Position numbers and translations under genes: made by a program. From positions 55,611-119,610 of the forward strand of contig NZ_SIRT01000013.1 in the NCBI RefSeq assembly GCF_004310325.1: a stretch of DNA of 64,000 nucleotides, read 5' to 3'. Below the pieces are notes generated by a model. The model had not been told where the DNA came from, made no database searches, and was given only the letters and a program-made list of their open reading frames with translations. This document shows, in pieces, positions 42,694 to 64,000 of the stretch (its first letter is position 1; each line of letters opens with the position of its first letter). This DNA comes from Hyunsoonleella flava (lineage in GTDB: Bacteria > Bacteroidota > Bacteroidia > Flavobacteriales > Flavobacteriaceae).

Positions 42694-42721
42694 GATAAAC
42701 ACAATTGTGTTTATCCATACG
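42694..42721 (+). other. putative attI-like primary site with 22-bp palindrome
   Basis: GATAAACACAATTGTGTTTATC is a perfect 22-bp palindrome (42694-42715), followed by CATACG and the first cassette end TTGTGTGTAATGC. It lies between the recombinase and cassette 1, where integrons have attI. It lacks the inner-helix mismatch pattern of the 16 other sites. An operator or hairpin role is possible. Confidence 0.5.
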
Positions 42722-42770
42722 TTGTGTGTAATGCAAAAACACCTATAACATTTAAAATAACATTTACGTT

Positions 42771-43943
42771 ATGACTAAAATTTATTTATTAATCCTCACT
42801 TTCATTTCATTTTTAAACATCGAAAATGACAAAGAAATTTTAAACAAAACAATTGTTAAACTCAATTCTTTAAAAACTATAGAATACGAATTAGTTACTC
42901 ACGATTATGTCAAGGATTATAATATAAATAAGATTGATAGCGCCTATTGTTATTTTGATTTCACAAGTAAAGACAAAATAATAGGAGCCAAATATCAGAT
43001 TATTTCAAAATTGGGAGAACAAGTTTTTAACGGAAAACAAAAATTTACAAGTATACCTAAAAAGGAATTAGTATTGTATAGTGAGAATGCAACTAAAAGC
43101 GAAATCATTAGCTCAAAATTCTTAAGTCCTTCAATATTTGAAATTCGAAAAATACTTCCAGAATTAGTGATTGATTCTTCAGCATTTATCACAAAGATAA
43201 AAGATAGTACCATAAACAATATTGAATGCTATCAATTCAAAATTTTAATGACACAAAAGTCAATTGGTATGGGCGGAGAATTAAAAAAGTTTGACACGAA
43301 TAAAATTGATTCATTAAATTATCATCTTTTTATTTCTAAAAAAACTTATTTACCAATTCAATTTGGAACAATCTTACATAATAATGGTGGTTATCAAATG
43401 TCTACATTCAATAATTTGAAAGAGGTAACAACTAAGAACATTTCTGTATGGGATTATAATAATATGCCAAAAGAGTATATGAAAATTAGTTATTCAGATT
43501 ATTTTATGGGAATGAGAACTAAAAATAAAGATAAGATTGGTTTAAATGCTTCTGACTGGAAATTACCAATGGTGCAAGGAGATTCAATCAAATTATCTGA
43601 GCTTAAAAACAACCTTGTTTTACTTGAATTTTGGTTTCCATATTGTAAAGGTTGTATTCAAGCAGTTCCCGAACTAAATGAAATTCAAGATAAGTATAAA
43701 ACTAAAGGACTTTTAACATTTGGAATTGAGTTCACAAAAAAATCAGAAAACATATTAATTGATTACATTGAAAAACAAAAAATTAAATTTCCAACTCTCT
43801 ATATGGGGAATGATGTTGCTAAAGAATATGGAATTTATGCAGCTCCTACATTTGTCTTAATTGATAAAAATGGAAAAATAATTTATAATAGTGCAAGTCT
43901 AAATAAAGAACAATTAATCAAGAAAATCGAAAATAATTTATAA
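42771..43943 (+). CDS. secreted TlpA-like thiol-disulfide oxidoreductase (cassette 1)
   Basis: 390 residues. N-terminal hydrophobic signal (MTKIYLLILTFISFLNI). Residues ~25-245 form an N-domain of unknown role, rich in beta structure. Residues ~260-390 are a thioredoxin fold with LLEFWFPYCKGC (redox CxxC), a cis-Pro AAPTFVLIDK and the TlpA-like PELNEIQDKY helix. It probably acts in the periplasm on disulfides. It begins 50 nt after the array start, the first gene behind the recombinase. Confidence 0.85.
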   Translation: MTKIYLLILTFISFLNIENDKEILNKTIVKLNSLKTIEYELVTHDYVKDYNINKIDSAYCYFDFTSKDKIIGAKYQIISKLGEQVFNGKQKFTSIPKKELVLYSENATKSEIISSKFLSPSIFEIRKILPELVIDSSAFITKIKDSTINNIECYQFKILMTQKSIGMGGELKKFDTNKIDSLNYHLFISKKTYLPIQFGTILHNNGGYQMSTFNNLKEVTTKNISVWDYNNMPKEYMKISYSDYFMGMRTKNKDKIGLNASDWKLPMVQGDSIKLSELKNNLVLLEFWFPYCKGCIQAVPELNEIQDKYKTKGLLTFGIEFTKKSENILIDYIEKQKIKFPTLYMGNDVAKEYGIYAAPTFVLIDKNGKIIYNSASLNKEQLIKKIENNL

Positions 43944-43958
43944 GAAAGCACTACACAC

Positions 43959-44080
43959 AACAAAGGCTATAAGTAATTGCTTGTTCTCGCCTACTTCTGA
44001 AAATCCTCACGGATTTTCAGTTTGGTGTGTACTTGCAAAGTTAAGTGCTAAACCACGCAACTACTCATAGCCCAACCGTT
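43959..44080 (+). repeat. attC-like site 1, short class
   Basis: 122 bp from AAC to GTT. Inner arms GGCTATAAGTAATTGC / GCAACTACTCATAGCC; tip CTGAAAATCC-TCAC-GGATTTTCAG. Terminal arm GCACTACACACAAC matches cassette 1 start GTTGTGTGTAATGC except the A.C at base 11. Covers most of the gene-free stretch 43944-44246; the remaining 166 bp are an A/T-rich leader. Confidence 0.85.
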
Positions 44081-44246
44081 GGCAACAATTTGAACTGACA
44101 ATATTCATAAACAAATTTTTAAACTACTTGTTTTAGTTATTAAATGCTTTTGTTAAAATTGGTTAAAAAAGTTAAAACTATTTTAAAATAATTTCTTACA
44201 CATAAAAAAGCTTTTGATTTGCTCTAATTAACCAAAATTTTAAATT

Positions 44247-44711
44247 ATGAAAAAGTCAGTCTTACTAAAATTATTAATTAATGTTTTAATTTTATTTTCC
44301 ATAATTGGACTACTAGGGCTCGCAATTAATATTCCTTTAAAAAAATGCATCATGAGTCCGATAAAGATTTGTATTGCAGATTGGAATTTATTTTATTGGT
44401 TTATTGCTATTATTGGTCTAACTGCTTGTTCATTCTTTTTGAAATCATTATATCATTTACGAAGGACGGCTATATTATTAGACAATGAATCTTTCTCCGA
44501 CATTATTAACCACTTGAAGAAATCTGGAACATGTTTTTTTGTTACAGGAATCATCTATTCTTTTGTAATAATTCTTCTTTGGGCTTACCTAGCAATTGAA
44601 ACAGGAGTAGTAGAAATAGGATACGATATGGATTTAATACCTCCTTTGTTTCTAATTATTATTGGTATTATTTTTAGAAAAATATCTAGTCTAAGTTTTA
44701 AATCTCAATAA
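44247..44711 (+). CDS. four-helix membrane protein, DUF2975-like (cassette 2)
   Basis: 154 residues with four hydrophobic helices (about 8-30, 48-70, 92-115, 127-145) and short polar loops; basic N-terminus. The layout, with LKSLYHLRRTAILLDNESF between helices 2 and 3, resembles DUF2975 membrane proteins, which often sit beside a small XRE regulator; no such regulator is adjacent here. Function unknown. It shares cassette 2 with the next gene (15 bp apart). Confidence 0.7.
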   Translation: MKKSVLLKLLINVLILFSIIGLLGLAINIPLKKCIMSPIKICIADWNLFYWFIAIIGLTACSFFLKSLYHLRRTAILLDNESFSDIINHLKKSGTCFFVTGIIYSFVIILLWAYLAIETGVVEIGYDMDLIPPLFLIIIGIIFRKISSLSFKSQ

Positions 44712-44726
44712 TTCTATAAATTTAAA

Positions 44727-46106
44727 ATGCACAAAAAACACATATGTATTAGCTTAATAACTTTGATCCTTGTTTTCAATTATTCTTGTCATCAACAAAA
44801 ATCTGATTACGTTATTCTAAGTGGAACAATTAAAAATGGAAATAAAACAATTGAATTAAGGTCTCATTATGACACTACCGATAAAACTAAGAGAAAAATC
44901 ATTCATTTAGATAAAAATGGTGATTTTCAAGATACTATCTATATTCAAAAAGAAGAATTATATGTGGTTTCAGACAAAACTAATATGTTTGAATTTCATT
45001 TAACCCCATCTAAGAAATACATTATCGAGTATGATACAAAAAAATTTAAGAACGAAGGCATTACTTTAAAAGGAGATGATATTGATATTAATGAATATTA
45101 TATAGATAAAACAAGAGGTATGGTATTCTACGATTTTAATGAATCGGGCAAGCCTGAGAAAGAAATTAGGAGTTTCCTTAATAATGTTAAAGAAAAACAA
45201 CTTAATAGACTAAATATTTCAAAATTGCCAAGTTCATTAAAAGAACATGAAGAAGCTTCTATTAAATTTGAATATCTGAGATATCTTTCATTATACCTTA
45301 GAGTAAACGAAATTAACACCCCATCTATTGAGTCTAAAAACGAGTTAGATATTGATTACTTGAACGAAGAAGAATATAAAAAATATCAATCATATAAATA
45401 TTTGTTACATGATTACTACCATGACCAATTAAACCAAAAAGCAAAAGTAAACCAAAAATTAAATTCGTCATATTCACTTTATCAAAATGGAATAAAAGAG
45501 TTAGCATTAATTATACCGAATGATTATATAAAAAACGATTTAATTGCTCATAATGCTTCATTTTTTCTTTTAAATTCAGAAGACATTGAATCTTGCTATA
45601 GCGACTTTAAAAAATATTACACTGGAAATGACACAATTATCAAATCTAAAATATTGGATTCATATTATCGATATGCTAAACTAAAAAAAGGAACCCCTTC
45701 TCCAAAATTCACTAATTTTAAAAATAATAATGGAGGGGAAAATTCACTAAACGATTATAAAGGAGCTTATGTGTTTATTGATATTTGGGCAACTTGGTGT
45801 GGCAATTGTTATGGAGAAATGCCTTATTTAAAAAAGTTAGAACAAGAATATAAAGATGTTGTTTTTTTAAGTATTGCTTGGAAAGATGATGAAAGCAAAT
45901 GGAGGAAAATAATAAAAAAAGAATCATTAACGGGGGTACAACTTTTTGCAACAAAAGAAGATAATTCCTTTTTTGAAGAGTATGCTGTAAATGGTATACC
46001 AAGATATATCTTAATCGACCCAGAAGGTAATATTGTAGACCATAATACACCTAGACCCTCAGATGACAAATTAAAAACTCTGTTTAAAGATGTTGGTATT
46101 GATTAA
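44727..46106 (+). CDS. thioredoxin-like lipoprotein (cassette 2)
   Basis: 459 residues, lipobox at Cys21 (FNYSC). Residues ~30-130 are a beta domain of the DUF4369 kind seen in Bacteroidota thioredoxin lipoproteins (SGTIKNGNKTIELRS). A helical middle follows. The last ~140 residues are a TlpA/ResA-type thioredoxin with FIDIWATWCGNC (CxxC) and cis-Pro NGIPRYILIDPEG. Envelope disulfide reductase is the likely role. Second thioredoxin protein in two consecutive cassettes. Confidence 0.88.
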   Translation: MHKKHICISLITLILVFNYSCHQQKSDYVILSGTIKNGNKTIELRSHYDTTDKTKRKIIHLDKNGDFQDTIYIQKEELYVVSDKTNMFEFHLTPSKKYIIEYDTKKFKNEGITLKGDDIDINEYYIDKTRGMVFYDFNESGKPEKEIRSFLNNVKEKQLNRLNISKLPSSLKEHEEASIKFEYLRYLSLYLRVNEINTPSIESKNELDIDYLNEEEYKKYQSYKYLLHDYYHDQLNQKAKVNQKLNSSYSLYQNGIKELALIIPNDYIKNDLIAHNASFFLLNSEDIESCYSDFKKYYTGNDTIIKSKILDSYYRYAKLKKGTPSPKFTNFKNNNGGENSLNDYKGAYVFIDIWATWCGNCYGEMPYLKKLEQEYKDVVFLSIAWKDDESKWRKIIKKESLTGVQLFATKEDNSFFEEYAVNGIPRYILIDPEGNIVDHNTPRPSDDKLKTLFKDVGID

Positions 46107-46223
46107 ATTGTATAAAATCGTTAGATAAAAAACGATGTAATTAACACTCGAAAATTTAATAGTAAAGAGCTAATTCCGATTTCTGACCATTTAACTTGTT
46201 AATAAAAACAAAAAACTGTTGCC

Positions 46224-46347
46224 AACACTGTATAAAAATAATAGCGGTTTAATCGCCAAAACGAAAGTAAGTAAATATAAATAAAGGTCTTTGTTTAACC
46301 GAAAAATTAGTGCTTTAAAACCGCTACTATTCTTATACTAAACCGTT
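46224..46347 (+). repeat. attC-like site 2, short class
   Basis: 124 bp. Inner arms GTATAAAAATAATAGCGG / CCGCTACTATTCTTATAC with A.C at 7 and 12. Terminal arm AACTGTTGCCAAC pairs with cassette 2 start GTTGGCAACAATT, A.C at base 11. Lies in the 436-bp gap 46107-46542; 46348-46542 is the leader of the RM cassette. Confidence 0.87.
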
Positions 46348-46425
46348 ACCTGTAATGCGGAAATAGTGCTAAAATTCAACATTTGAACTAAAAAGTCCAC
46401 CGCGTAAACAGCACATTTATTTTTT

Positions 46426-46480
46426 CCCAACGCGAAAATCCAAAGCTAAAAAAAATAAAAGAGCTATTTTTTTCCAACGC
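46426..46480 (+). repeat. pair of CCAACGC motifs left of the RM genes
   Basis: TTTTTCCCAACGCG at 46421-46434 and TTTTTTTCCAACGCTCG at 46467-46483 flank a weak AGCT...AGCT hairpin. A second pair lies right of the RM genes. Possibly remnants of another repeat family. Confidence 0.35.
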
Positions 46481-46518
46481 TCGAACAAATTCAAACCGAA
46501 TTTCTTGCTATCTTAAAT

Positions 46519-46549
46519 TTGACAAACTATATTTGACACTTATTGTCAA
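46519..46549 (+). promoter_or_regulatory. C-box-like operator upstream of the RM controller gene
   Basis: Three half-sites: TTGACA (46519), TTGACA (46533) and TGTCAA (46544); the last two form a perfect inverted repeat with a 5-nt spacer, ending 14 nt before the controller ATG. Such paired boxes are typical for C-protein autoregulation. Confidence 0.6.
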
Positions 46550-46563
46550 GTAATAATTTTCAA

Positions 46564-46878
46564 ATGGAAACAATCGGACAAATTTTACGGAATAAAAGAC
46601 TAAATCTAGGACTTCTTTTGAGACAAGTTTCAGCTTATGTTGATATTGACCAAGCAATATTGAGCAAAATCGAAAGAAACGAGCGAAAACCGACAAAAGA
46701 AATGTTGGAAAAATTAGCTGAAATTCTGAAACTCGATAAAGATGAACTTCTAATTCAGTTCATTAGCGACAAAATTGCTTATGAAATTGTAGATGAAGAT
46801 TGTGCTAGTAAAGTGCTAAAAGTTGCCGAAAAAAAAATAAAATATCTAAAATCAAATCCAATACCAAAACTAACATAG
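46564..46878 (+). CDS. XRE-family controller of the RM system (cassette 3)
   Basis: 104 residues from ATG 46564; an in-frame TTG at 46543 would place the start inside the operator, so I reject it. Helix-turn-helix in IGQILRNKRLNLGLLLRQVS and DQAILSKIERNERKPT. A C-terminal lysine-rich helix extends the usual C-protein length (about 75-80 residues). It ends right before the methyltransferase ATG (no gap). Expected role: delays endonuclease expression when the cassette enters a new host, by binding the TTGACA/TGTCAA boxes. Confidence 0.85.
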   Translation: METIGQILRNKRLNLGLLLRQVSAYVDIDQAILSKIERNERKPTKEMLEKLAEILKLDKDELLIQFISDKIAYEIVDEDCASKVLKVAEKKIKYLKSNPIPKLT

Positions 46879-47973
46879 ATGAGTACAGAATTAGAAAATA
46901 TGAGCATTGCCAAAGAACCACAATTAAGGATGTATTCACCACCTATTGATATCTCAAAAAAGCAATCAAAAGAAAAAGAGAAAATTGATGTTATTTCACT
47001 TTTTTCTGGTTGTGGTGGAATGGATTTAGGATTTGATAAAGCTGGTTTTAATATAAAATGGGCTAATGATATTGAAAAAAGAGCTTGTGAAACATACGCA
47101 AAAAATATTGGGGACCACATTGTTTGTGGAGACATAACTGAATTAGATTATTCAAAAATACCAGATGCAGATTTAATACTTGGTGGATTTCCTTGTCAAG
47201 ATTTTTCTATGATTTGGAAAAGAGGAGGAATAACGACAGACAGAGGTAATTTATATCAAAACTTTGTTGAAATTGTTTCTCAAAAGCAGCCCTTAATGTT
47301 TGTTGCAGAAAATGTAAAAGGAATTTTAACTGCTAATAAGAAAAAAGCAATAAAGACTATAATTAAAGATTTTTCAGAGACTGGAGATTACGGTTATAAT
47401 ACAACTGCACATTTAGTGAATTTTGCAGAATATGGAGTAGCTCAGCTTCGTCAAAGGGTTTTAATTATTGGAGTAAGAAAAGATTTAGATACATTTTTTG
47501 ACATACCAGCACCAACAAATGACGCGGACAACTATTTAACTGCTAAAGAAGCTTTGAAAGGAGTGAAAAAAGTAAAACATAACAACGAGCATCAAAACAT
47601 CCAAGCTGGTACTATTGAAAAATTAAAGCTAATTCCACCAGGAGGTAATTTTACTGACATTCCAAAAGATTCACCACACTATGTAAAAGGAATGATTTCT
47701 CACGTTTACCGCAGACTTCATCCTAACAAACCGTCAACTACTATCATTGCTGCTGGTGGTGGTGGAACTTGGGGATATCATTATGATGAACCAAGACCGT
47801 TAACCAACAGAGAAAGAGCAAGATTATTTGGTTATCCAGACGATTTTGTATTTGAGGGCACTATTACAGAAGTGAGAAAACAAATTGGTAATTCTGTTCC
47901 ACCATCAGGTATTTATCCTTTTGCAAAACAGATAAAAACATTTTTAGAAAATATCAAGGTTAATGCACACTAA
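46879..47973 (+). CDS. DNA (cytosine-5) methyltransferase (cassette 3)
   Basis: 364 residues. C5 motifs in order: I DVISLFSGCGGMDLG, IV GGFPCQDFS with catalytic Cys106, VI AENVKG, VIII QLRQRVLIIG, then the target recognition region (about 210-290), IX RPLTNRERARLFGYP and X IGNSVPP. A 36-residue N-terminal tail precedes motif I. It protects DNA from the endonuclease encoded by the next gene, whose start overlaps by 11 bp. Target sequence cannot be read from the protein. Confidence 0.95.
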   Translation: MSTELENMSIAKEPQLRMYSPPIDISKKQSKEKEKIDVISLFSGCGGMDLGFDKAGFNIKWANDIEKRACETYAKNIGDHIVCGDITELDYSKIPDADLILGGFPCQDFSMIWKRGGITTDRGNLYQNFVEIVSQKQPLMFVAENVKGILTANKKKAIKTIIKDFSETGDYGYNTTAHLVNFAEYGVAQLRQRVLIIGVRKDLDTFFDIPAPTNDADNYLTAKEALKGVKKVKHNNEHQNIQAGTIEKLKLIPPGGNFTDIPKDSPHYVKGMISHVYRRLHPNKPSTTIIAAGGGGTWGYHYDEPRPLTNRERARLFGYPDDFVFEGTITEVRKQIGNSVPPSGIYPFAKQIKTFLENIKVNAH

Positions 47974-48979
47974 TATTCAAAAATACGGAGGCGACTTTAG
48001 GAATGTTTTAGATAAAGAGTTTAAGACGTCTAATAATATTACAGTTGCATCAGGTTACGCTTCACTTGACGTAATTAATGCTTTTGAAAAACCGTTTATT
48101 GAAATTGCAAAAAAAGGTGGTACATCAAGACTGCTTTTAGGAATGGCATTTTATGAGGGATTAGGTCAAAAAAAGTTGAAAGCAGTAACAAAATTGAATG
48201 ATTCTTTAAAAGCTTACAACAAAAACTCAGGTGTGTTTGTAACTAATGGCAGAAGATATCACGGTAAAGTATATCAATTTGATAAAGATGTAACGTCAAA
48301 TATCTATGTTGGTTCATCAAATTTTTCTGCAAGTGGAACTAAAGGGAATATCGAATGTACAATACCTATATTAGATGACAATCAAAAAGTAAATCTGATA
48401 GCATTTTTAAATGACCTTTATTCGCCTTCCTACTCGATATCAATAGACCAAGCTGATATAACTGTTCCAGGTAAAAAGAAAATTGTTCTTGACAAAGTAG
48501 AAAGACTTTGGACAAGTTTAAAAACTTATGATTCATCTTCAATTTCTTTAGAAAAACTACCCAAATTTGTTTTCCCATTAGACCGAGTTGCCGAAAAAGA
48601 AAAATCAAACCTCAATGTTTATTTTGGAAAAGGTAGATGGAGTCGGTCAACTGGCAAAGTTAAACCAAGACCTTGGTACGAAATAGAACTTATTGCTAGT
48701 AATGATTTGAACTCTCAAACATTCTATCCTAAAGGCGACTTTCTTGCCTATACTGACGATGGTTTGATAATCCCAATGAGAACTCAAGGAGATTACTATA
48801 AAAACATCCGTTCAAAAAATAGTTTACAGATTTTTGGAATATGGTTAAAAGGAAAACTAGAAAGAAGCGGAGTATTAAAAAAATATGAACCTGTTACATT
48901 GGAAACTTTAGAAGAATATGGGAATGACAAACTTACTTTTTACAAGTTTGAAGAAGGGAAATATTATATGACTTTTTAA
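47963..48979 (+). CDS. NgoFVII-type (PLD-fold) restriction endonuclease (cassette 3)
   Basis: 338 residues. A PLD-type active site: His100 and Lys102 in YHGKVYQF, followed by VGSSNFSASG, the pattern of NgoFVII/BfiI-like metal-independent nucleases. The N-terminal third (SRLLLGMAFYEGLGQ) fits the same fold; the C-terminal half (about 185-338) is probably the DNA-binding domain. Overlap with the methyltransferase gene and position behind a controller gene give a complete type II RM system inside one cassette. Confidence 0.88.
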   Translation: MHTNIQKYGGDFRNVLDKEFKTSNNITVASGYASLDVINAFEKPFIEIAKKGGTSRLLLGMAFYEGLGQKKLKAVTKLNDSLKAYNKNSGVFVTNGRRYHGKVYQFDKDVTSNIYVGSSNFSASGTKGNIECTIPILDDNQKVNLIAFLNDLYSPSYSISIDQADITVPGKKKIVLDKVERLWTSLKTYDSSSISLEKLPKFVFPLDRVAEKEKSNLNVYFGKGRWSRSTGKVKPRPWYEIELIASNDLNSQTFYPKGDFLAYTDDGLIIPMRTQGDYYKNIRSKNSLQIFGIWLKGKLERSGVLKKYEPVTLETLEEYGNDKLTFYKFEEGKYYMTF

Positions 48980-49062
48980 GCCAACGCGCAAGCCATACAC
49001 ATTTACAGTTGCACCATCCAAGCTTCACCAAAACTGTAAAAGAGTATGTCTTCTGCCAACGC
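48980..49062 (+). repeat. hairpin bounded by CCAACGC motifs right of the RM genes
   Basis: GCCAACGC at 48980 and 49055 enclose TTTACAGTT / AACTGTAAA plus ATACAC / AGTAT outer pairs. Similar in plan to a recombination site but without the AACA...CGTT ends; a decayed or foreign site is possible. It fills most of 48980-49091. Confidence 0.4.
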
Positions 49063-49091
49063 TAGCAAGTTTGCGGAAAAGCACTACAGGT

Positions 49092-49283
49092 AACAATGTA
49101 TAAAAAAAATAGGGCAAAAAGTGCTTAATCGAAAGGTCTGTGCGTGTTTGCCAAGTCACCAAATTTTTAAATTTGGTATAATTAAAAAGAAAAAAGATAA
49201 TTAACAAAATTTAAAAATTCGGCTTTAGCTTAATCCGAAAAGTATCGCTTACAACTGCCCTACTTTTCTTATACTAGACCGTT
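49092..49283 (+). repeat. attC-like site 3, long class
   Basis: 192 bp. Inner arms GTATAAAAAAAATAGGGC / GCCCTACTTTTCTTATAC; extra internal hairpin ACCAAATTTTTAAATTTGGT. Terminal arm GCACTACAGGTAAC pairs with cassette 3 start GTTACCTGTAATGC 2.7 kb upstream, bracketing the whole RM system. Confidence 0.87.
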
Positions 49284-49310
49284 GTGCGTCATTTTGAAAA
49301 AAGTAACTAA

Positions 49311-49871
49311 TTGAGAAAAATTGTAAGTCTTAACGAACCAAAAGATGGAATTATTCGCTTGATGATTTACAATGACGAATTTGGAACTTATCTCTTTGGG
49401 TTTAAAAAATTGGAAGATTGCAATTCTGAATGGGACGAGTGGTATGAATCCGAAAAAGATGCAATCGAAAGTTGCGAAATAGAATACGGAATCGGAGCGG
49501 ATAAATGGACTGATATACCAAATCCAGAACAAGATTGCAAGCACGACAGAATAAAACCTCAAGGACTTCCCATTTTGGACTATTCAACTTTAAACATCAC
49601 TAGACAAAAGCTCGCGGATTTTGGCAAAGTTGAACTTCTAAAAAAAATTGAGCGGATTTTAAATGGCATTCCTATTGAAAAACCCAAATTGCATAACAAG
49701 AAAAATGAACTCGAAACAAACCAATATCGGATTGACTTGGATAGTGAGAGTATCGAAAAAATAATTGATTTCTTTTCAGATTTAGAGGTTAGTGCTTTAG
49801 ACGAAAATTATGAGCCGAAATCAAGCCGCTACTCAGATTTAGTTGACAAATGGACCAATATTTCGGAGTAG
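49311..49871 (+). CDS. unknown acidic cytoplasmic protein (cassette 4)
   Basis: 186 residues from a TTG start at 49311, 28 nt after the cassette boundary; no ATG fits. No signal peptide or membrane segment. The N-half is rich in D, E, W and Y (LEDCNSEWDEWYESEKDA), the C-half alternates helices and ends in a region rich in D and E. The overall look resembles small immunity or cargo proteins, but no family is recognised. Sole gene of its cassette. Confidence 0.65.
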   Translation: MRKIVSLNEPKDGIIRLMIYNDEFGTYLFGFKKLEDCNSEWDEWYESEKDAIESCEIEYGIGADKWTDIPNPEQDCKHDRIKPQGLPILDYSTLNITRQKLADFGKVELLKKIERILNGIPIEKPKLHNKKNELETNQYRIDLDSESIEKIIDFFSDLEVSALDENYEPKSSRYSDLVDKWTNISE

Positions 49872-49892
49872 TACGCAAAAAAACGAACGCAC

Positions 49893-50080: not shown

Positions 50081-50102
50081 GTGTGTCATTAAAACAAAAA
50101 TT

Positions 50103-50495: not shown

Positions 50496-50499
50496 ATCA

Positions 50500-50931: not shown

Positions 50932-50950
50932 ACCTGCCATATAACCACAA

Positions 50951-55064: not shown

Positions 55065-55088
55065 GTAATGCATTTAAGACCAAACTAA

Positions 55089-56018: not shown

Positions 56019-56032
56019 TAAAAACGCATTAC

Positions 56033-56155: not shown

Positions 56156-56196
56156 GTGCGTAAGCTGAAAAAAAACTCTGAATAACGAGAAATTTA

Positions 56197-56772: not shown

Positions 56773-56835
56773 CGCCAGTTCTTAACCGAAAATTATTAAC
56801 TTTAATCCCGTAACTGACGGTTATACGAGACCGTT
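56711..56835 (+). repeat. attC-like site 11, short class, divergent inner helix
   Basis: 125 bp. Inner arms GTATAACCGCAATTACGG / CCGTAACTGACGGTTATAC; position 12 A.C is kept, position 7 is a normal pair and one T is bulged. Tip GGATTCG-ACTACGT-CGAATCC. Terminal arm GCCTACGCACAAC pairs with cassette start GTTGTGCGTAAGC. Confidence 0.82.
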
Positions 56836-56859
56836 AGCAATAATTAAAACAAAATACCA

Positions 56860-58311
56860 TTGAGAACAGAAACCAAATTATCTAAAATAATATCAATTTT
56901 CATTATTCTTTTATCATATTTAAACGTGCAAGGACAAAAGTCAATTGGCGAAATTAAAATAGAAGAAAAACAAAAAAATGTATCTAACCTTTCTGGTGCG
57001 CTAAACGATTCTATATCTTTTCATATTATTATTAATAAGGTAAAAAAAGAATATAAATCTGAAATTTATTTTTACAATAAGAGCGAACAAACCAAATTAA
57101 TAAAACTCTATAAAGGACCTGAAAAACCTATTTATGTAACATTTCATGTAAATGATAATAACTTAACATTAATTAAGGAGTCTCAAAATTTATCTATAAT
57201 ACAAGATGTTAACTATCTAACTGAAGTTACAAGTTCAAAGCCTATCTATTTAAAACCAGAAAATATTTTTTCTCATAAAAACAGGACGTTCTTAATTGAT
57301 GAGATTAAGGATCGTACTCGTAAGATTATACAGATTAAATCTGTTGAGGACATTAAAATCACTTCATATAAAGCTAAAAATTTTTTTCAGTTAAATCTAC
57401 TTAATGCTATTAGCACTGATAAAACGGAATTTGTAAATGATTTACAATTTGTTGAGAAAGGTTCTATTAAGACCTATAAAGCATTTTATAGTAACGGAAA
57501 TTTAGTTTTTGTGATAGATAACAAGAAAGTAGGTGAAATAAATTTGGTTTATTTCAATGAATCTGGTGATATAAGAAATCAAAAAATAGCAATAGAAGAA
57601 AGTAAAAAAATAAAAAAAATGAATTCTTTTATTAAGGACAACTTTTTATTTACTTTTTACATGAATAAAGAACTTGCTTATCTTTTAATACATGATGTTA
57701 AAACAGAAAAATTAGTTTCGGAATTTAAGTATGACATTAACTCTTTTGGATTATATAATAAAGTTATAATAAATGGTAAAGTATCTAATAATTCTTTTAA
57801 CACTAAAAAATTTTTTAAGAGTTTTTTCCCTCAAGCCATTGGTTCTACTTATAACGCAGAACTTTATTTAGGTGTTAACAAATCAACTAACGGTGATTAC
57901 ATAGTTCAAATTGGCCATGTAGACAAGAATACTTATCATAACAGATCTGGGAATAATTATTGGTGGAATTATCCAGCTTTTGGGTTTAATTATAATTTAT
58001 CTAATGGCAACACCTCTGTAGGTTTCAATCCTGGCGCAATGTCTATGGTCATTTTTGAAGCCTTATCGGATAATAAGAGAAAAGGGAATTATTTTGAATT
58101 GAATTTAGATTCTAATTTTAATCATGTTGGCGACACTATAAATCCAGAATATACTTCTCTTTTGAAATCAGAAGAATACATTAAAAGAATTAACATTACA
58201 ATGAAGCTTAAAAAACATTTTTTTATTCCATTAAAATATTCTGTTAGAATGATCAACTTTAATAATAAAAAAGAATCTTATGAAATATTCGATTACCCTA
58301 TAATTAAATAA
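56860..58311 (+). CDS. unknown exported protein (cassette 12)
   Basis: 483 residues from TTG 56860. Signal peptide (LSKIISIFIILLSYLNVQGQ). The mature part is beta-rich with many short KxxNxF strands, possibly a propeller (residues ~40-400); YWWNYPAFGFNYN near residue 370 and a basic C-terminal tail. No catalytic motif seen. The protein should be periplasmic or on the surface. Sole gene of its cassette. Confidence 0.65.
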   Translation: MRTETKLSKIISIFIILLSYLNVQGQKSIGEIKIEEKQKNVSNLSGALNDSISFHIIINKVKKEYKSEIYFYNKSEQTKLIKLYKGPEKPIYVTFHVNDNNLTLIKESQNLSIIQDVNYLTEVTSSKPIYLKPENIFSHKNRTFLIDEIKDRTRKIIQIKSVEDIKITSYKAKNFFQLNLLNAISTDKTEFVNDLQFVEKGSIKTYKAFYSNGNLVFVIDNKKVGEINLVYFNESGDIRNQKIAIEESKKIKKMNSFIKDNFLFTFYMNKELAYLLIHDVKTEKLVSEFKYDINSFGLYNKVIINGKVSNNSFNTKKFFKSFFPQAIGSTYNAELYLGVNKSTNGDYIVQIGHVDKNTYHNRSGNNYWWNYPAFGFNYNLSNGNTSVGFNPGAMSMVIFEALSDNKRKGNYFELNLDSNFNHVGDTINPEYTSLLKSEEYIKRINITMKLKKHFFIPLKYSVRMINFNNKKESYEIFDYPIIK

Positions 58312-58319
58312 CTATTGCT

Positions 58320-58443
58320 AACACCGTATATAATTTATTGCTTGTTCTAGCCTACTTACGAAAATCCTCGCGGATTTTCTATTTGGTTTTTATTTGCTAA
58401 ATTATGTACTTAAACCACGCAACAAACCATATACAATACCGTT
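58320..58443 (+). repeat. attC-like site 12, short class
   Basis: 124 bp. Inner arms GTATATAATTTATTGC / GCAACAAACCATATAC, A.C at 7, 8 and 12; tip GAAAATCC-TCGC-GGATTTTC. Terminal arm ACTATTGCTAAC pairs with cassette start GTTAGCAATAAT. Confidence 0.87.
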
Positions 58444-58453
58444 ACCTACAATT

Positions 58454-59119
58454 ATGAAAAACATTCCGCTACTGATTTTAACATTGATTTTAATTGCAAG
58501 TTGTAGTTCAAAACAAACTTCATCGGAATTGGAAAAGCTGACTGAAAAACTGACCGAAAAAGAAAAGCAGATTTCGGATTTACAGACACAAATTGAGAAT
58601 TTAGAAAACAAACAAACTTCGGATTATTATCGCTTCGTGGAAACTTCGGACTCTGAAATAAATGTTGCGGAAAAATTAAAAAGCGGAGAACGGAAATTAA
58701 TTGACAAAAAGGATTTTATAGACACTTTAGATATATCAGACAATTTTTTCGTTTACAAACATACTTCTGAAATCACTCAAACGTCTGAATCGGAATTTGA
58801 ATCAATCCTTCGTGATTTTGACCAAGTTAAATCGGAATATGGAAATGACTTTTTTGTGAGAGTAATGACATTTTATAATGGACAAAGTTTACCTCTGGAA
58901 ATCGAAAATTCTAAAACTGATATTCATATTTTGATTCAACCGACTGAATTGGGTTATGAAAATAAAACGTTCGTGATTTCGGACTTTTATGATGTTGACA
59001 TAAAAACGCTTGAAAAGAAAGAAAATAGTGTCGAACTGACTTTTGAACACGGAAAATTTCCGAAAAAAAGAGAATTAATAATAATAAAACCTGAATTAGT
59101 AAAATTTGGAAAAAAATAA
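58454..59119 (+). CDS. lipoprotein with coiled coil, unknown function (cassette 13)
   Basis: 221 residues from ATG 58454, 13 nt after GTT; an upstream in-frame ATG at 58394 lies inside the recombination site and would destroy the signal. Lipobox at Cys17 (LIASC). A coiled coil follows (ELEKLTEKLTEKEKQISDLQ, about 23-50), then a mixed domain rich in D, E and F. It may be a periplasmic or surface protein. No family recognised. Confidence 0.7.
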   Translation: MKNIPLLILTLILIASCSSKQTSSELEKLTEKLTEKEKQISDLQTQIENLENKQTSDYYRFVETSDSEINVAEKLKSGERKLIDKKDFIDTLDISDNFFVYKHTSEITQTSESEFESILRDFDQVKSEYGNDFFVRVMTFYNGQSLPLEIENSKTDIHILIQPTELGYENKTFVISDFYDVDIKTLEKKENSVELTFEHGKFPKKRELIIIKPELVKFGKK

Positions 59120-59127
59120 CTGTAGGT

Positions 59128-59251
59128 AACAACGTGTATAGCTCATTGCTTCTGAATTTCCTACTCGGAAATTCTTGCGCAATTTGCTATCTTGTTTCCT
59201 TAATCGGAAAATCATACTGATTTTCCGCAACGAGCCATACACAAACACGTT
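59128..59251 (+). repeat. attC-like site 13, short class
   Basis: 124 bp. Inner arms GTGTATAGCTCATTGC / GCAACGAGCCATACAC; tip GGAAAATC-ATACT-GATTTTCC. Terminal arm AACTGTAGGTAAC pairs with cassette start GTTACCTACAATT. Confidence 0.87.
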
Positions 59252-59285
59252 GTAATGCATTTGAAAACAAATAAAAATATATAGT

Positions 59286-59696
59286 ATGCCATCATTTCAC
59301 TATGCGTTTAAAGTAAAAGATATAGAATCAACAAGAAAATTCTACGTAGATATTTTGGGGTGTAAAGAAGGCAGGTCTGCAGAAACTTGGATCGATTTTG
59401 ATTTTTTTGACAATCAACTTTCTGCAAACATCAGTGAAAATTTTCCCGAATTAGACTACTGTGGAAAAGTGGATGGAATTAGCGTTCCAATTCCTCATTT
59501 TGGATGTTTATTAAACACAGAAACATTCAAAAGATTACAAAAGAAATTAGAATCCGAAAAAATTGAATTTGTTGTTAAACCACAAAAGCGATACGAAGGA
59601 AAAGTTGGTGAACAGCTTACAATGTTTGTATTTGATTTTAGTGGTAACCCTCTGGAATTTAAATCATTTTCTAATCCTAGCGAAACTTTTAAATAA
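59286..59696 (+). CDS. VOC (glyoxalase/bleomycin-resistance fold) protein (cassette 14)
   Basis: 136 residues. Two beta-alpha-beta-beta-beta modules: HYAFKVKDIESTRKFYVDIL opens the first, with the metal-type His at position 5, and VFDFSGNPLEFKSF closes the second with a Glu in the metal position. Catalyses or binds an unknown small substrate; dioxygenase-like and resistance roles are both possible. Its TAA is directly followed by the ATG of the next gene, so the pair is translationally coupled. Confidence 0.85.
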   Translation: MPSFHYAFKVKDIESTRKFYVDILGCKEGRSAETWIDFDFFDNQLSANISENFPELDYCGKVDGISVPIPHFGCLLNTETFKRLQKKLESEKIEFVVKPQKRYEGKVGEQLTMFVFDFSGNPLEFKSFSNPSETFK

Positions 59697-61970
59697 ATGA
59701 ACACATTTTTAGAAAAAGAATTTAGTATCAAAATTCTGAATAACAAGATACTTGATGGTTACGATAATAAGAATTATCATATCATAACAGAAGAAAATGA
59801 TTTTATCTATAAGACTTATAAATTTTCAGAATCGCTAAAAGATACCGTTGAAGCAGAGAATGATACACTTCTCTACTTACAAGAAGAGTTTGACACCTAT
59901 ATTCCAAAGCCTTTTGCTTTTAAAGACAGGTCCTTTGTAAAAGTTATAGAGTCAGATAATGGCAGACAAATTTCGCGTATGCTTTCATTTTTAAAGGGAA
60001 AGTTTCTTGGTAACGCAAAGCACACACCTTCCTTATTTGAATCTTTGGGGACATTCTTGGCACAGCTAGACATCAAATTAAAAGACTATAAAAACTATAC
60101 CATTCAAGCTAGAAAATGGGAATGGGATATTCAATACTTTGAATTAAACAAAAAGTACATTAATCACATTCCAAATCCGAAAGATAGAAATGTAGTTGCA
60201 TATTTTTTCAATCAGTTTGAAGAGATTGTAAGACCTGTTATTCCTGAACTTAGAAAACAGGTCATTCATAATGATGCTAATGAATGGAACATACTCGTTC
60301 AAGATGGTAAAATTTCAGGAATCATTGATTTCGGAGATGTTGCACATACCTTTTTAATTAACGAATTGGCGATTGCTATTACATACGGATTCTATGACAA
60401 AGAAAATCCATTAGAATGGGCTGTTATTCTTATTAAAGCGTATCATCAAGAACTTCCTTTAGAAGAGAAAGAGCTAAAAATACTGTATTACCTTATAGCT
60501 GCAAGACTATGTACTAGCGTATGTAATTCAGCACACGCACGTAAAGCAAATCCTAATAACACCTATGCATCTGTTAGCGAGAAGTCTGCTTGGAAAATGC
60601 TTTACCGTTGGCTTGCAATAAATCCAATCAAAGCTGAAAATGAATTCAGAAAAGCCGCAGGTTTTTCAAAGCTTGAAAAGATTGATATAAATGAAGTTCT
60701 AAAAAGAAGACTTCAGTACATCAGTCCTATATTATCATTGAGCTATAAAGAACCCATTCATATGGTTCGTTCAGCGTTTCAATATATGTATGATGCTGAT
60801 GGAAATACGTTTTTAGACGCGTACAACAATATTCCACACGTAGGACATTCGCACCCAAAAGTAATAGAAGCTGGTAAAACACAAATGGCAAAACTGAATA
60901 CCAATACAAGGTATCTTTTTGACGAACTAGCCATATATGCTGAAAAGCTACTGGGTCATTTTCCCCCTAATTTAAACAAAGTGTTTTTTGTCAACTCTGG
61001 AAGTGCAGCAAGTGATTTAGCTATTAGAATGGCTAATAACCATACAGATTCAAAACATATGATGGTAATGGAGCTTGGTTATCACGGTAACACACAAACG
61101 TCCATAGAGATAAGTGATTATAAATTCAACAATCCTAAAGGCAATGGACAAAAAAAACACATCATTAAAACCACTATACCAGATACCTACAAAGGAGTTT
61201 ATCAAAAAGACAATCCCAATGCTGGGCAATTATATGGATTAGATGCGGTAGCACAAATTAAAAATAGTTCTGTGCCAATTTCTGCTTTTATTAGCGAACC
61301 TATTGTAGGTTGTGCAGGTCAAGTACCACTACCCAAAGGATATTTAAATGAAGTGTATCCAGCTATAAGGGCTCAAGGAGGAATTTGTATCAGTGATGAA
61401 GTACAAACAGGATTCGGACGATTGGGAGAACACTTCTGGGGATTTGAAGCTTCTGAAGTTATCCCTGATATGGTAATACTTGGTAAGCCCATTGCAAATG
61501 GACATCCAATGGGAGCTGTGGTCTGCACTGAGGAAATTGCTGCTTCTTTTGAGAAAGGTGTAGAATTCTTTAGTTCGTTTGGAGGTAACCCAGTTTCTTG
61601 TGCCATAGCTACTGCAGTTTTAGATGTTATTGAAGAGGAAAAATTACAAGAGAATGCCAATGCAGTAGGTGAATATTACACTTCACGTTTAAGAGAATTA
61701 ATGCACAAATATCCTTGCATTGGAGATGTTAGAGGTAACGGATTATTTATAGGTTGCGAAATAGTAAGAGATAATTCCAAAAACCCAAATACAGAACTAG
61801 CTTGTCACATCAAGAATGAATTACGAAGGAAACATATACTAATAAGTACAGATGGACCTTTTGACAACATTATTAAAACTAAACCAGCTTTGTGTTTTAG
61901 CAAAGAAAATGTAGATATCGTGGTAAATGCCATTGACGAAGTATTAAAAACGCATTACAACAATGTATAA
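59697..61970 (+). CDS. APH-like kinase fused to class III aminotransferase (cassette 14)
   Basis: 757 residues. Residues ~20-320 are an aminoglycoside-phosphotransferase/choline-kinase fold with His191-Asn192-Asp193 ([10 protein letters not shown]) and IIDFGDV. Residues ~345-757 are a fold-type I PLP enzyme: [33 protein letters not shown] and PLP Lys597 in LGKPIANG. This pairing is known in bacterial relatives of ethanolamine-phosphate phospho-lyase, so it may phosphorylate an amino alcohol and then eliminate or transaminate it. The substrate is open. The stop codon TAA (61968-61970) lies inside site 14. Unusually large cargo for the array. Confidence 0.88.
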
Positions 61971-62082
61971 AAATAATAGCGGTTCAATCGCTAAAACGAA
62001 GTTAGGTAAATATGAAAAAGGTCTGTGTTTAACTGAAAAGTTAGTGCGTGAAAATCCGCTACTATTCTTATACTAGACCGTT
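61959..62082 (+). repeat. attC-like site 14, short class
   Basis: 124 bp. Inner arms GTATAAAAATAATAGCGG / CCGCTACTATTCTTATAC, the same as in site 2. Terminal arm AACGCATTACAAC pairs with cassette start GTTGTAATGCATT (same ends as cassette 10). Confidence 0.87.
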
Positions 62083-62098
62083 GGCAACAATTACAGAA

Positions 62099-62884
62099 AT
62101 GACGAAAAACATAATACTATTAACACTAATATTATTGACAATTTCTTGTAAGAAGAATAAAAAAGTTAATAATGTAAAATCTGAAAGTCAAGTTGAAATT
62201 TCAGAAAAGGAACCGATTAAAACAGTAATTAAAAATGAATCAAAACCACATTCCTTAATTAAAGAAACAAAGGGCGAAAAAACCCAAAAAGAATACTCAA
62301 TTGGAAATATTAAAATCCAACTGAATCAATATAAAAGTGACGGAACTGAATTCTATTGTAAGTCTGAAATCATTACTTATAAGAATGACAAACAGATAGA
62401 TTATATTTCATTTACGCCAGAACCAGTTGGTGGAAATTACGGAATCTCAGTCGCAACAAAATTTAACAACCATTTGATTTTTACAAAACACGGTGATTAT
62501 GATGGTAGAACGCTAATAATTAATGACAAAGGAAAAATTTTCAATGTAGTTGGTGGAGATAATTACCTTGATGAAGAATCAGAACTGCTTTTTGCAATTT
62601 ACGAATCTGATTTAAGTGGTTTCTCTGTATTTGATTTAAAAACTGATTCTACATTATTGACAATGGAAGATATAGATGAAAGACCTATTAGATTTCTTAA
62701 GAATTTCGGGAACAGATATTTTATTTCGTGCATCAATGACGAAACTGACAATAAAAGTGTTTGGGAAATCGAAATTGACCTCGAAAGAATAATGCAAGTT
62801 GAATTAAATGATACCGACATTAATTCGGAAAATCAATTAAAAAACATCTCTGATAGCGATGTCAACTGTGTTTGCGAAAAGTAA
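62099..62884 (+). CDS. lipoprotein of unknown function (cassette 15)
   Basis: 261 residues from ATG 62099, 19 nt after GTT; a longer frame from 62048 would start inside the recombination site. Lipobox at Cys17 (LTISC) followed by a lysine-rich linker (KKNKKVNNVKSE...KEKGEK), then a beta-rich domain (about 75-250) with GGNYGISVATKFNNH and GDYDGRTLIIND. No family recognised. Envelope location likely. Confidence 0.68.
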   Translation: MTKNIILLTLILLTISCKKNKKVNNVKSESQVEISEKEPIKTVIKNESKPHSLIKETKGEKTQKEYSIGNIKIQLNQYKSDGTEFYCKSEIITYKNDKQIDYISFTPEPVGGNYGISVATKFNNHLIFTKHGDYDGRTLIINDKGKIFNVVGGDNYLDEESELLFAIYESDLSGFSVFDLKTDSTLLTMEDIDERPIRFLKNFGNRYFISCINDETDNKSVWEIEIDLERIMQVELNDTDINSENQLKNISDSDVNCVCEK

Positions 62885-62895
62885 AAACTGTTGCC

Positions 62896-63084
62896 AACAC
62901 GGTGTATAAAACATAGCTAATAAGTGCTTAACCGAAAGGTTTGTACTTATTAGCAAAGACCGCCAAATTTTTAATTTGGCTTTTAAAAAGAGAAAAATTA
63001 AAAACAAAATATAAAAATTCGGCTCAGTGTTAACCCGAAAAGTTAGCGTTTATTTATACGCTACGTTTCATACACAAGACCGTT
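62896..63084 (+). repeat. attC-like site 15, long class
   Basis: 189 bp. Inner arms GTGTATAAAACATAGC / GCTACGTTTCATACAC; extra hairpin GCCAAATT-TTT-AATTTGGC. Terminal arm AACTGTTGCCAAC pairs with cassette start GTTGGCAACAATT (same ends as cassette 2). Confidence 0.87.
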
Positions 63085-63108
63085 GTGCATAATTAAAAAA
63101 ATCGCGAA

Positions 63109-63753
63109 TTGAAAAAAATATTACTGTTTGGATTTATAATAGTATCTATCAATCTACACTCTCAAATAATGACTAGATACTTTATTGAAGGAGTTGAAAT
63201 TGTAGATTACGTGACTCTCGAAATTTGTGCTGATAGTATAAATGGAATAAACAATGTTGAATTGATTGCGGAAAAAACAACCCATAAAAATCAAGCTAAT
63301 ATTGACCAACTTGTAAATTACATTAAGAGTTTTGACTATCCTAAAGATGGTCCTTTAATTGGGAGATGCGGAAATCTAGCCTTTTCATTTATGAATCCTG
63401 AATTTGAAAACTTGAAATTAAATGAAAATGAAATAGAAGAATGCTCAAAATTTAGATTAGGGAATTATAGCTATCATCATATAAATCATCAAGACACAAA
63501 AATTAAGCGGAGAAAAAAAATGCAAAAAGAAAAAAGCTATAAAAGTAGACAGATTTATAGTATTAACTGGACATCGAATTCTACATATACTTTGACTTAC
63601 AAAAGAATGTCTGATGACAACCTAAAAAATTTAATTGGAGAAAAAATCGAGGTTGAAATTCTAAAACTTTTAGATAACGACGGATACGTTTACAGGTCGA
63701 CAAGTCCGAAAGGAATTGTTTACTATGGAGCGATATACAAATCAAAAAAATAA
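63109..63753 (+). CDS. unknown exported protein (cassette 16)
   Basis: 214 residues from TTG 63109. Signal peptide (KKILLFGFIIVSINLHSQ). Mature part alpha/beta, with a very basic middle (KIKRRKKMQKEKSYKSR, about 134-151) and a beta-rich C-terminus (LTYKRMSDDNLKNLIGEKIE). No family recognised. Sole gene of its cassette. Confidence 0.65.
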   Translation: MKKILLFGFIIVSINLHSQIMTRYFIEGVEIVDYVTLEICADSINGINNVELIAEKTTHKNQANIDQLVNYIKSFDYPKDGPLIGRCGNLAFSFMNPEFENLKLNENEIEECSKFRLGNYSYHHINHQDTKIKRRKKMQKEKSYKSRQIYSINWTSNSTYTLTYKRMSDDNLKNLIGEKIEVEILKLLDNDGYVYRSTSPKGIVYYGAIYKSKK

Positions 63754-63761
63754 CTATGCAC

Positions 63762-63884
63762 AACAATGGCTATAAGTAATTGCTTGTTCTCGCCTACTTC
63801 TGAAAATCCTAGCGGATTTTCAGTTTGGTGTGTACTTGCAAAGTTTAGTGCTAAACCACGCAACTACTCATAGCCGAGACCGTT
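63762..63884 (+). repeat. attC-like site 16, short class
   Basis: 123 bp, almost identical to site 10 along its full length. Inner arms GGCTATAAGTAATTGC / GCAACTACTCATAGCC; tip CTGAAAATCC-TAGC-GGATTTTCAG. Terminal arm AACTATGCACAAC pairs with cassette start GTTGTGCATAATT. Confidence 0.87.
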
Positions 63885-63895
63885 GGCTACAATTT

Positions 63896-64000
63896 TGACC
63901 CGTCCTGAATAAAGGCTACATAATTTTAAACATTATGTATAAAAATGACAAAGTAATCAGACGGTATTCAGAACCTTTTAAACTGAAAATTTTAGACGAA
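63896..64000 (+). mobile_element. left end of an IS3-family-like insertion sequence
   Basis: TGACCCGTCCTGAATAAAGG begins 14 nt after the cassette 17 start (GTTGGCTACAATT). A TG start, a short non-coding tip ending GGCTACA, then a transposase ORF A after 39 nt fit IS3-family elements. The right end is outside the window. Confidence 0.65.
63935..64000 (+). CDS. IS3-type transposase OrfA, N-terminal 22 codons
   Basis: Translation starts MYKNDKVIRRYSEPFKLKI, the RRYSEPFKLKIL pattern that opens the helix-turn-helix of many Bacteroidota IS3-family OrfA proteins. Cut by the right window edge; the OrfB DDE domain would lie beyond. Confidence 0.7.
   Translation, partial: MYKNDKVIRRYSEPFKLKILDE

What the first reader, a model, noticed from the sequence alone, without database searches (positions are those of the whole stretch)
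42721..64000. Integron-like gene cassette array behind a non-IntI tyrosine recombinase in a flavobacterium
Seen: 16 folded sites with invariant AACA at the left edge and CGTT at the right edge split 21 kb into cassettes of 0.7-2.9 kb, each with one to three genes, all in one direction, directly downstream of a tyrosine recombinase and a palindromic site. Known: classical integrons have attC sites RYYYAAC...GTTRRRY, an attI site and an IntI integrase with an extra segment near the catalytic box. Here the AAC/GTT core and G^TT-type ends are kept, but the consensus RRRY is not, and the recombinase lacks the IntI segment. Inference: a related but separate cassette-capture system.
Basis: partly seen in the sequence, partly recalled or inferred. 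Interest (0 to 1): 0.96.

Follow-up and report, generated by a model that had tools for sequence, protein, structure and literature searches.

The report
Integron-like gene-capture system in flavobacteria
A flavobacterial genome carries a row of 16 gene cassettes, each ending in a hairpin site that matches the start of its own cassette, beside a recombinase that lacks the hallmark segment of integron integrases; the recombinase likely captures and shuffles genes the way integrons do, and the same kind of site was found in 170 of 199 sampled genomes of this bacterial family.

Summary
Sixteen AACA...CGTT hairpin sites cut 42721-63881 into 16 cassettes of 662-2936 bp behind a tyrosine recombinase (41526-42656) and a palindromic attI-like site. 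The decisive evidence is that the outer arm of each site pairs with the start of its own cassette (perfect 7 bp in 14 of 16), not with the neighbour across the site. This is the memory of a circular cassette. The rule recurs in related genomes, with an A eight bases after GTT in 213 of 213 matched cassettes, facing a C in 187. Two Psychroserpens are 90% identical through recombinase and attI; identity stops at G|TT and the arrays differ. Identical cassettes occur as A-B and B-A in one array. The recombinase lacks the IntI additional domain (91-92 versus 133 residues between catalytic motifs), scores below the IntI cut-off and branches apart from IntI, yet on IntI's side of XerC/XerD. The sites occur in 170 of 199 sampled genomes of the family. 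I read this as a widespread integron-like system with an I2-less recombinase, different arm rules and a palindromic attI: a new variant of a known kind. Recombination itself was not tested.

The parts
41526..42656 (+). tyrosine recombinase, 376 aa, I2-less; N-terminal extension 1-105, core-binding and catalytic domains
   Evidence: Pfam PF00589/PF13495; NF040815 228.7 bits over cut-off 220, TIGR02249 207.4 under 265; 91 aa between ArgI and HxxR motifs
42667..42674 (+). predicted -7 element (TATATTTA) of a cassette promoter; motif recalled, not tested
   Evidence: read; TATATTTG-like words at the same place in several relatives
42694..42715 (.). attI-like perfect palindrome GATAAACACAA/TTGTGTTTATC
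   Evidence: 0 of 100 shuffles reach it; 22 of 27 class A loci with an assigned attI have one
42721..42723 (+). attI-like crossover point G|TT, start of cassette 1
   Evidence: own arm of cassette 1 starts here; sister Psychroserpens diverge at the same point
43959..44080 (.). attC-like site 1
46224..46347 (.). attC-like site 2
49092..49283 (.). attC-like site 3
49893..50080 (.). attC-like site 4
50885..50931 (.). attC-like site 5 (short)
51699..51822 (.). attC-like site 6
53180..53370 (.). attC-like site 7
54217..54402 (.). attC-like site 8
54878..55064 (.). attC-like site 9
56033..56155 (.). attC-like site 10
56711..56835 (.). attC-like site 11
58320..58443 (.). attC-like site 12
59128..59251 (.). 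attC-like site 13
61959..62082 (.). attC-like site 14
62896..63084 (.). attC-like site 15
63762..63884 (.). attC-like site 16
42721..44077 (+). cassette 1: thioredoxin-like (AhpC/TSA) protein
44078..46344 (+). cassette 2: 154-aa protein and redoxin-domain protein
46345..49280 (+). cassette 3: HTH regulator, C5 DNA methyltransferase, NgoFVII-type restriction enzyme
49281..50077 (+). cassette 4: 186-aa protein without Pfam match
50078..50928 (+). cassette 5: two small proteins, Pfam not run
50929..51819 (+). cassette 6: 249-aa protein, TonB-plug match under cut-off
51820..53367 (+). cassette 7: 437-aa protein without Pfam match
53368..54399 (+). cassette 8: cation-efflux protein; 90% identical cassette gene in another genus (L070)
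54400..55061 (+). cassette 9: 149-aa protein without Pfam match
55062..56152 (+). cassette 10: Mrr-type (type IV) restriction enzyme
56153..56832 (+). cassette 11: DUF6933 protein (PADLOC candidate PDC-S63)
56833..58440 (+). cassette 12: 483-aa protein without Pfam match
58441..59248 (+). cassette 13: about 220-aa protein without Pfam match
59249..62079 (+). cassette 14: glyoxalase-fold protein and phosphotransferase-aminotransferase fusion
62080..63081 (+). cassette 15: 261-aa protein without Pfam match
63082..63881 (+). cassette 16: 214-aa protein without Pfam match
63882..64000 (+). start of a 17th cassette, interrupted by an IS end; contig ends here

Best explanation
The window holds 16 cassettes, each bounded by a GTT and by a hairpin site whose outer arm pairs with the start of its own cassette, next to an I2-less tyrosine recombinase and a palindromic attI-like site; [quoted passage not shown] Shown: the own-cassette arms, their A against C at position 8, compensatory base changes in the inner helix, shuffled identical cassettes, and divergence of two sister arrays exactly at G|TT. 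Inferred: that this recombinase does the work, that the bottom strand is the substrate, that cassettes circulate as circles, and that a promoter at the end of the recombinase gene reads into the array. Only one strand can turn the recurrent A.C mismatches of outer arm and inner helix into G.T pairs; that would tell the enzyme which strand, and so which orientation, to use. Cassettes likely also reach other places: in this genome single cassettes sit inside a dispersed short attC-like hairpin.
For: Window: arm of each site matches its own cassette start (7-bp run in 14 of 16, 6 and 4 with a one-base bulge in the others), 0 of 20000 permutations; match across the site is no better than chance. 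41 loci: run 7 in 172 and 6 in 41 of 287 consecutive pairs, versus 72 of 3731 non-neighbour pairs at 6 or more. Position 8 is A in 213 of 213 cassettes with a run of 6 or more and faces C in 187. Inner helix: 12 of 14 pairs with compensatory changes in 77 sites; its first interruption is A.C on the top strand in 138 of 147. Bottom strand folds more stably in 209 of 213 composites, control 63 of 157. Psychroserpens pair: 89.6% identity ends at GTTGT. L064: two cassettes at 100% identity as A-B and as B-A. Named genomes: 27 of 27 model hits lie downstream of the recombinase on its strand, in 6 of 11 loci. Best fold match of the recombinase model is the integron integrase of PDB 2a3v. Recombinase presence and site presence go together across 199 genomes (98 of 102 against 72 of 97; genomes are not independent).
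Against: No recombination was observed. AACA and CGTT were search words, so their invariance in the wider set is by construction (the window's were found by eye). 74 of 287 consecutive pairs show runs under 6; I put this mainly to missed or false sites of a crude detector but did not check each. Of 41 loci, 8 show no site downstream: 6 end within 1 kb of the recombinase, but L063 (about 6 kb) and L069 (truncated recombinase, about 18 kb) do not. About 18 sites are scattered in this genome, and 6 of 14 checked have no clear own start. 72 of 170 site-bearing genomes have no recombinase match at E <= 1e-60. Outside the family the site is not tied to I2-less enzymes alone: 11 of the 32 site-bearing genomes of other families also have an IntI over cut-off, and in G203 four sites lie 4-6 kb before an IntI with no I2-less recombinase in the 20 kb read. 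In all 5 homologous cassette pairs between genomes the gene is 76-91% identical but the hairpin only 46-62%, so gene and hairpin do not simply travel as one frozen unit.
Confidence: 0.85

Rival explanations
1. It is an ordinary integron whose integrase has merely lost the additional domain and whose attC sites drifted: a derived branch inside the IntI family.
For: Recombinases and IntI fall on one side of XerC/XerD with 100/100 support; AAC/GTT core, own-cassette arms and bottom-strand bias are integron traits; divergent recombinase-array layout in two genomes of another class, as in classical integrons; similar sites occur in genomes that have IntI.
Against: IntI is one clade (100/100) on a long stem, without any of these recombinases inside it (13 IntI sampled); the I2-less proteins form deep lineages; RRRY absent; arm is longer with a fixed position 8.
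Confidence: 0.22
2. The hairpins are dispersed REP/terminator-like repeats at gene ends, and the recombinase is an unrelated neighbour.
For: Sites are hairpins behind genes; scattered singles exist.
Against: Pairing is between the two ends of a cassette 0.4-7 kb long rather than within the site; 27 of 27 hits in named genomes lie downstream of the recombinase on one strand; identity between sisters stops at G|TT.
Confidence: 0.02
3. The arrays are fossils: cassettes were laid down by an ancestral enzyme and the present recombinase serves another purpose, such as inverting or resolving its own locus.
For: No activity shown; the second locus in this genome has a broken recombinase; 72 site-bearing genomes have no close recombinase.
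Against: Catalytic residues are conserved; recent events: 100% identical reordered cassettes, unlike arrays behind 90% identical recombinases.
Confidence: 0.08

Closest known systems
Classical integron (IntI, attI, attC)
   Same: Array of cassettes read in one direction behind a tyrosine recombinase; AAC...GTT sites conserved in structure more than sequence; crossover G|TT; arms pair within the cassette; bottom-strand bias of folding; cargo of defence and unknown genes.
   Different: Recombinase lacks the additional domain and misses the IntI profile cut-off; no RYYYAAC/GTTRRRY; outer arm GTT+7+A+about 3 with an A.C/G.T position; G.T wobbles in the helix; attI with a palindrome 3-6 bp before the crossover; recombinase co-directional with the array in the Flavobacteriaceae loci read.
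XerC/XerD chromosome-dimer recombinases
   Same: Same fold and catalytic residues.
   Different: Separate clade (100/100); below both family cut-offs.
NF040815 recomb_XerA_Arch ('site-specific tyrosine recombinase/integron integrase', NCBIfam)
   Same: The window protein passes its cut-off (228.7 over 220); RefSeq already names many relatives so.
   Different: A broad label; it says nothing of arrays, sites or the missing additional domain.
CALIN and single-attC loci
   Same: Site clusters without a close recombinase and scattered sites are seen here too.
   Different: In this genome they accompany a recombinase-borne array with the same kind of site.

Membership tests
Classical integron | IntI integrase with the additional domain around patch III (as stated in passages of PMC9668308 and PMC2426708) | tested here: not met
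   91-92 residues between motifs in 43 of 43 scored, 133 in 18 of 18 IntI scored; TIGR02249 207.4 under cut-off 265
Classical integron | attC sites: AAC...GTT ends, structure conserved, sequence variable | tested here: met
Classical integron | RYYYAAC / GTTRRRY consensus (recalled) | tested here: not met
   RRRY in 8 of 213 own starts, chance 13
Classical integron | outer arms pair within one cassette (circular-cassette logic) | tested here: met
Classical integron | recombination of the folded bottom strand | tested here: inconclusive
   bottom strand folds better in 209 of 213; no biochemistry
Classical integron | attI site beside the integrase as insertion point for the first cassette | tested here: met
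   position and divergence point; its palindrome is unlike attI as described in a figure legend of PMC8946536
Classical integron | Pc promoter reading into the array | not tested
   TATATTTG-like word only; motif recalled
Classical integron | integrase-dependent excision of circles | not testable with these tools
   needs an experiment
XerC/XerD | score over TIGR02224/TIGR02225 cut-offs | tested here: not met
   187.1 under 335.15 and 194.9 under 329.6
NF040815 family | score over curated cut-off | tested here: met
   228.7 over 220
XPB/HARP-like DNA-structure domain (N-terminal extension) | shared fold | tested here: inconclusive

The most novel reading that the evidence does not exclude
A second kind of integron, run by a recombinase lineage as deep as IntI itself, dominates Flavobacteriaceae. 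It reads hairpins without the IntI helix, perhaps through its own N-terminal DNA-structure domain, chooses the strand by G.T wobble pairs, uses a palindromic attI, has its own site-specific IS parasite and has stayed invisible to integron searches; a truncated copy with its attI stands directly in front of tet(X3) in Acinetobacter plasmids.
Probability: 0.53. Interest if true: 0.97.

Novelty: new variant of a known kind. Interest (0 to 1): 0.92.

Why it matters
Integrons are defined by IntI, and the IntegronFinder 2.0 passage I read names a single complete integron in Bacteroidetes proper, in Salinibacter ruber (PMC9024848). Here 170 of 199 sampled genomes of one large family carry cassette-type sites, and in the loci read they stand next to a different recombinase. 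If it works as argued, gene capture by hairpin cassettes arose or persisted without the IntI helix, the cassette pool of these bacteria has been overlooked, and the question of how a recombinase reads folded single strands gains a second solution to compare.

Tried and rejected
Sites as terminators or REP repeats: rejected, because pairing is with the far end of the own cassette. Rfam: no family reaches its gathering score in the window, and none matches the stretch behind one single site. Identical genes with different arms in L050 looked like hairpin swapping; the identical 1.3 kb proved to be an IS inside different cassettes, so I dropped it. Classical IntI arrays as a control for arm length: 12 IntI loci fetched on their 5' side gave almost no arrays with my detector, so the classical comparison rests on published description and recall. 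N-terminal domain: only weak fold matches, under the level the tool calls meaningful; listed as a lead. An attC-like site behind tet(X3): the model found none there and the best arm matches in 4 of 7 bases; not claimed. Literature: in the listings of 10 searches (not all aimed at Flavobacteriaceae) I saw no description of such arrays; the library holds only open-licence papers and no preprints.
Full report
OBSERVATION. The array is real. In the window 16 of 16 sites begin with AACA and end with CGTT. They cut 42721-63881 into 16 cassettes of 662-2936 bp. The recombinase (376 aa) ends 64 bp before the first crossover G. A 17th cassette start follows the last site, is interrupted by an IS end, and the contig stops with the window. 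The same genome holds a second, broken copy of such a recombinase followed by one cassette and the same IS end, a 15.5-kb contig that carries sites along its length and three more sites at the end of contig C1.

THE KEY TEST. A repeat that folds where it stands would pair its left arm with its right arm. A cassette that was once a circle pairs its end with its own start. I compared the bases before AAC at the end of each cassette with the bases after GTT at the start of the same cassette and of all others. Own-cassette runs: exactly 7 bp in 14 of 16, 6 and 4 (each then shifted by one bulged base) in the other two. Sum 108 against at most 65 in 20000 permutations. Across the site the mean run is 0.75, against 1.32 for unrelated pairs. 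This is integron logic, seen directly in the letters.

HOW GENERAL. In 199 genomes of the family, 102 have a protein match at E <= 1e-60. I took 40 regions: 34 with hits at 54-78% identity (class A, one of them truncated) and 6 at 37-45% (class B). Of 41 loci with the window, 28 have two or more detected sites downstream, 5 have one, 8 have none; of those 8, six end within 1 kb of the recombinase, L063 and L069 do not. Of 287 consecutive site pairs, 172 show a 7-bp own run and 41 a 6-bp run, against 72 of 3731 non-neighbour pairs. The remaining 74 have shorter runs; my detector misses and invents sites, and I did not inspect each. In the 213 cassettes with a run of 6 or more, position 8 after GTT is A in 213 and faces C in 187, G in 21, A in 5. 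The seven bases between are free: 110 different words. RRRY fits 8 of 213.

THE SITE. Main length class 122-127 nt, a second near 188, a few of 44-47. On 77 bottom-strand sites 12 of 14 helix pairs show compensatory changes, and one position is a G.U-type pair in 59 of 77. The first interruption of the inner helix is A on the left and C on the right in 138 of 147. A.C on the top strand is G.T on the bottom strand, so the bottom strand forms the longer helix: it folds more stably in 209 of 213 joined sites, mean 4.1 kcal/mol, against 63 of 157 random pieces. The A/C at position 4 is fixed by my search words and is no evidence. Published attC strand choice rests on extrahelical bases, spacer and terminal structure (passages in PMC8946536); wobble pairs as strand mark are my inference.

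MOVEMENT. (a) Two Psychroserpens genomes share 89.6% identity through recombinase and attI; the alignment ends at GTTGT and the next bases differ. Beyond it, same-strand blastn at E <= 1e-10 pairs only stretches at the sites. (b) In L064 two cassettes at 100% identity stand as A-B at one place and B-A at another, with breaks within a few bases of the GTT. (c) Window cassette 8 (cation efflux) has a gene 90% identical to one in a genus whose recombinase is 40% identical; its arms differ at three positions and match within each genome. (d) 30 of 73 shared stretches start, and 16 of 73 end, within 25 nt of a crossover G in one of the two; 3.9% of positions lie so near. (e) In the 11 named loci, 27 of 27 model hits lie downstream of the recombinase on its strand, in 6 loci; four of the other five have under 0.9 kb downstream.

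RECOMBINASE. Nearest solved relatives are archaeal Xer proteins and the integron integrase of PDB 2a3v, to which it aligns with a gap where IntI has its extra segment. Spacing between the first Arg motif and HxxR: 91-92 residues in 43 of 43 relatives scored (44 given), 133 in 18 of 18 IntI scored (20 given, all from other Bacteroidota families), 96-98 in this genome's two Xer proteins. Tree of 49 rows (14 of 34 class A and 13 of 18 IntI, chosen by hand; one XerD dropped for lack of an ORF): XerC/D apart with 100/100; IntI one clade 100/100; class A one clade 100/99; whether A, B and other-class form one group is neither shown nor rejected (p-AU 0.47). Phage and archaeal recombinases were not sampled, so 'sister of IntI' is conditional. 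The predicted structure (pLDDT 79.5, pTM 0.47) matches 2a3v best. The first 105 residues form a separate small domain with only weak resemblance to XPB and HARP domains.

ATTI. Of 34 class A loci, 27 have an assigned first crossover, and 22 of these carry a palindrome that at most 1 of 100 shuffles reaches, 3-6 bp before the G. The palindromes differ in sequence but keep their symmetry. None of 3 class B loci with an assigned crossover has one; there a word like TATATAAACAA precedes GTT. The spacing resembles the 5-6 bases between inner helix and GTT in the sites, so the attI may present the same half-structure; this is a guess.

DISTRIBUTION. The site model hits 170 of 199 genomes of the family at E <= 1e-9 and 49 of 296 in a phylum sample, 17 of them in this family. 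Genomes with the recombinase more often have sites (98 of 102 against 72 of 97; p 1e-5, not corrected for kinship). IntI over its cut-off occurs in 105 of 395 genomes of the phylum sample, none of the matching ones in this family. Of the 32 site-bearing genomes outside the family, 11 also have such an IntI, so there the sites could be IntI's. In G234 and G242, genomes of another class, the site arrays stand next to I2-less recombinases 43-46% identical to the window's, in divergent layout; G234's IntI is on another contig. In G203 four sites lie before an IntI without an I2-less enzyme in the stretch read. A class B-like recombinase with four model hits downstream also occurs on a plasmid of Chryseobacterium sp. 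SNU WT5.

SCATTERED SITES. This genome gave 52 model hits, about 18 of them scattered. Of 14 checked, 8 have an own start with at least 6 of 7 bases and the A. Several lie inside a dispersed short hairpin whose left arm (TTCGTTTAAC or TTCGTTTACC) and right arm (GTTAAACGAA or GGTAAACGAA) still match each other across the inserted cassette; the bases right after the G belong to the target, which again puts the crossover after G. Seven left halves were found: six are directly followed by GTT+7+A, the seventh by ATT+7+A.

LITERATURE. Read as passages only: IntegronFinder 2.0 (PMC9024848), archaeal integrons (PMC9668308), integron evolution (PMC2426708), natural history (PMC8618304), host factors (PMC8946536), expression review (PMC8876359), attC taxonomy (PMC8352920, whose list of 11 taxa names no Bacteroidota), Tenacibaculum larymnensis (PMC10013915, where IntegronFinder found no integron), tet(X) origin (PMC7494873). 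The listings of the 10 searches showed no account of this system.

Noticed in passing
window 63882-63910; L204-L210, L050, L046, L069: An IS with two overlapping ORFs (130 and 293 codons in L050) sits at one fixed place, its CCGTCC end 18 nt after the G of GTT: 14 of 14 occurrences in fetched loci and, without selection, 7 of 7 in the whole own genome. It looks like an IS that targets these sites. Of 60 genomes, 9 have the end sequence; the contexts in the other eight were not read.
   Followed up: partly
L200, L201, L203 (Acinetobacter and uncultured plasmids): The 221-aa 'XerD/TnpF' gene before tet(X3) is a truncated relative (55% over residues 143-376), followed by a class A type palindrome and GTT+7+A directly before tet(X3) (read in L200). 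PMC7494873 (title, passage) gives the arrangement xerD-tet(X3) and proposes Flavobacteriaceae as source of tet(X). No model hit behind tet(X3).
   Followed up: partly
homologous cassettes L046/L047, L070/window, L038/L056, L036/L045, L038/L047: Between genomes the gene is 76-91% identical, arms are equal in 3 of 5 pairs and changed but matched in 2, while the hairpin is only 46-62% identical. Why hairpins turn over faster than genes is unexplained; the identity of unrelated hairpins was not measured.
   Followed up: partly
L092, L095, L096, L098, L099, L100, L105, L106: A repeat with CCCGCGTTAGGGATTG or a close variant lies about 60 bp behind these single-cassette docking hairpins; no Rfam match for the one tested, L096.
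   Followed up: no
L191 4397-9547 and L192 6278-9544: The stretch upstream of the recombinase also differs between the two Psychroserpens, between blocks of 94% and 90% identity, and holds no model hit.
   Followed up: no
window 46345-49280 and 55062-56152: Cargo includes a type II restriction-modification pair and an Mrr-type enzyme; the first cassette of L055 also reads like a methyltransferase locus (by eye).
   Followed up: partly
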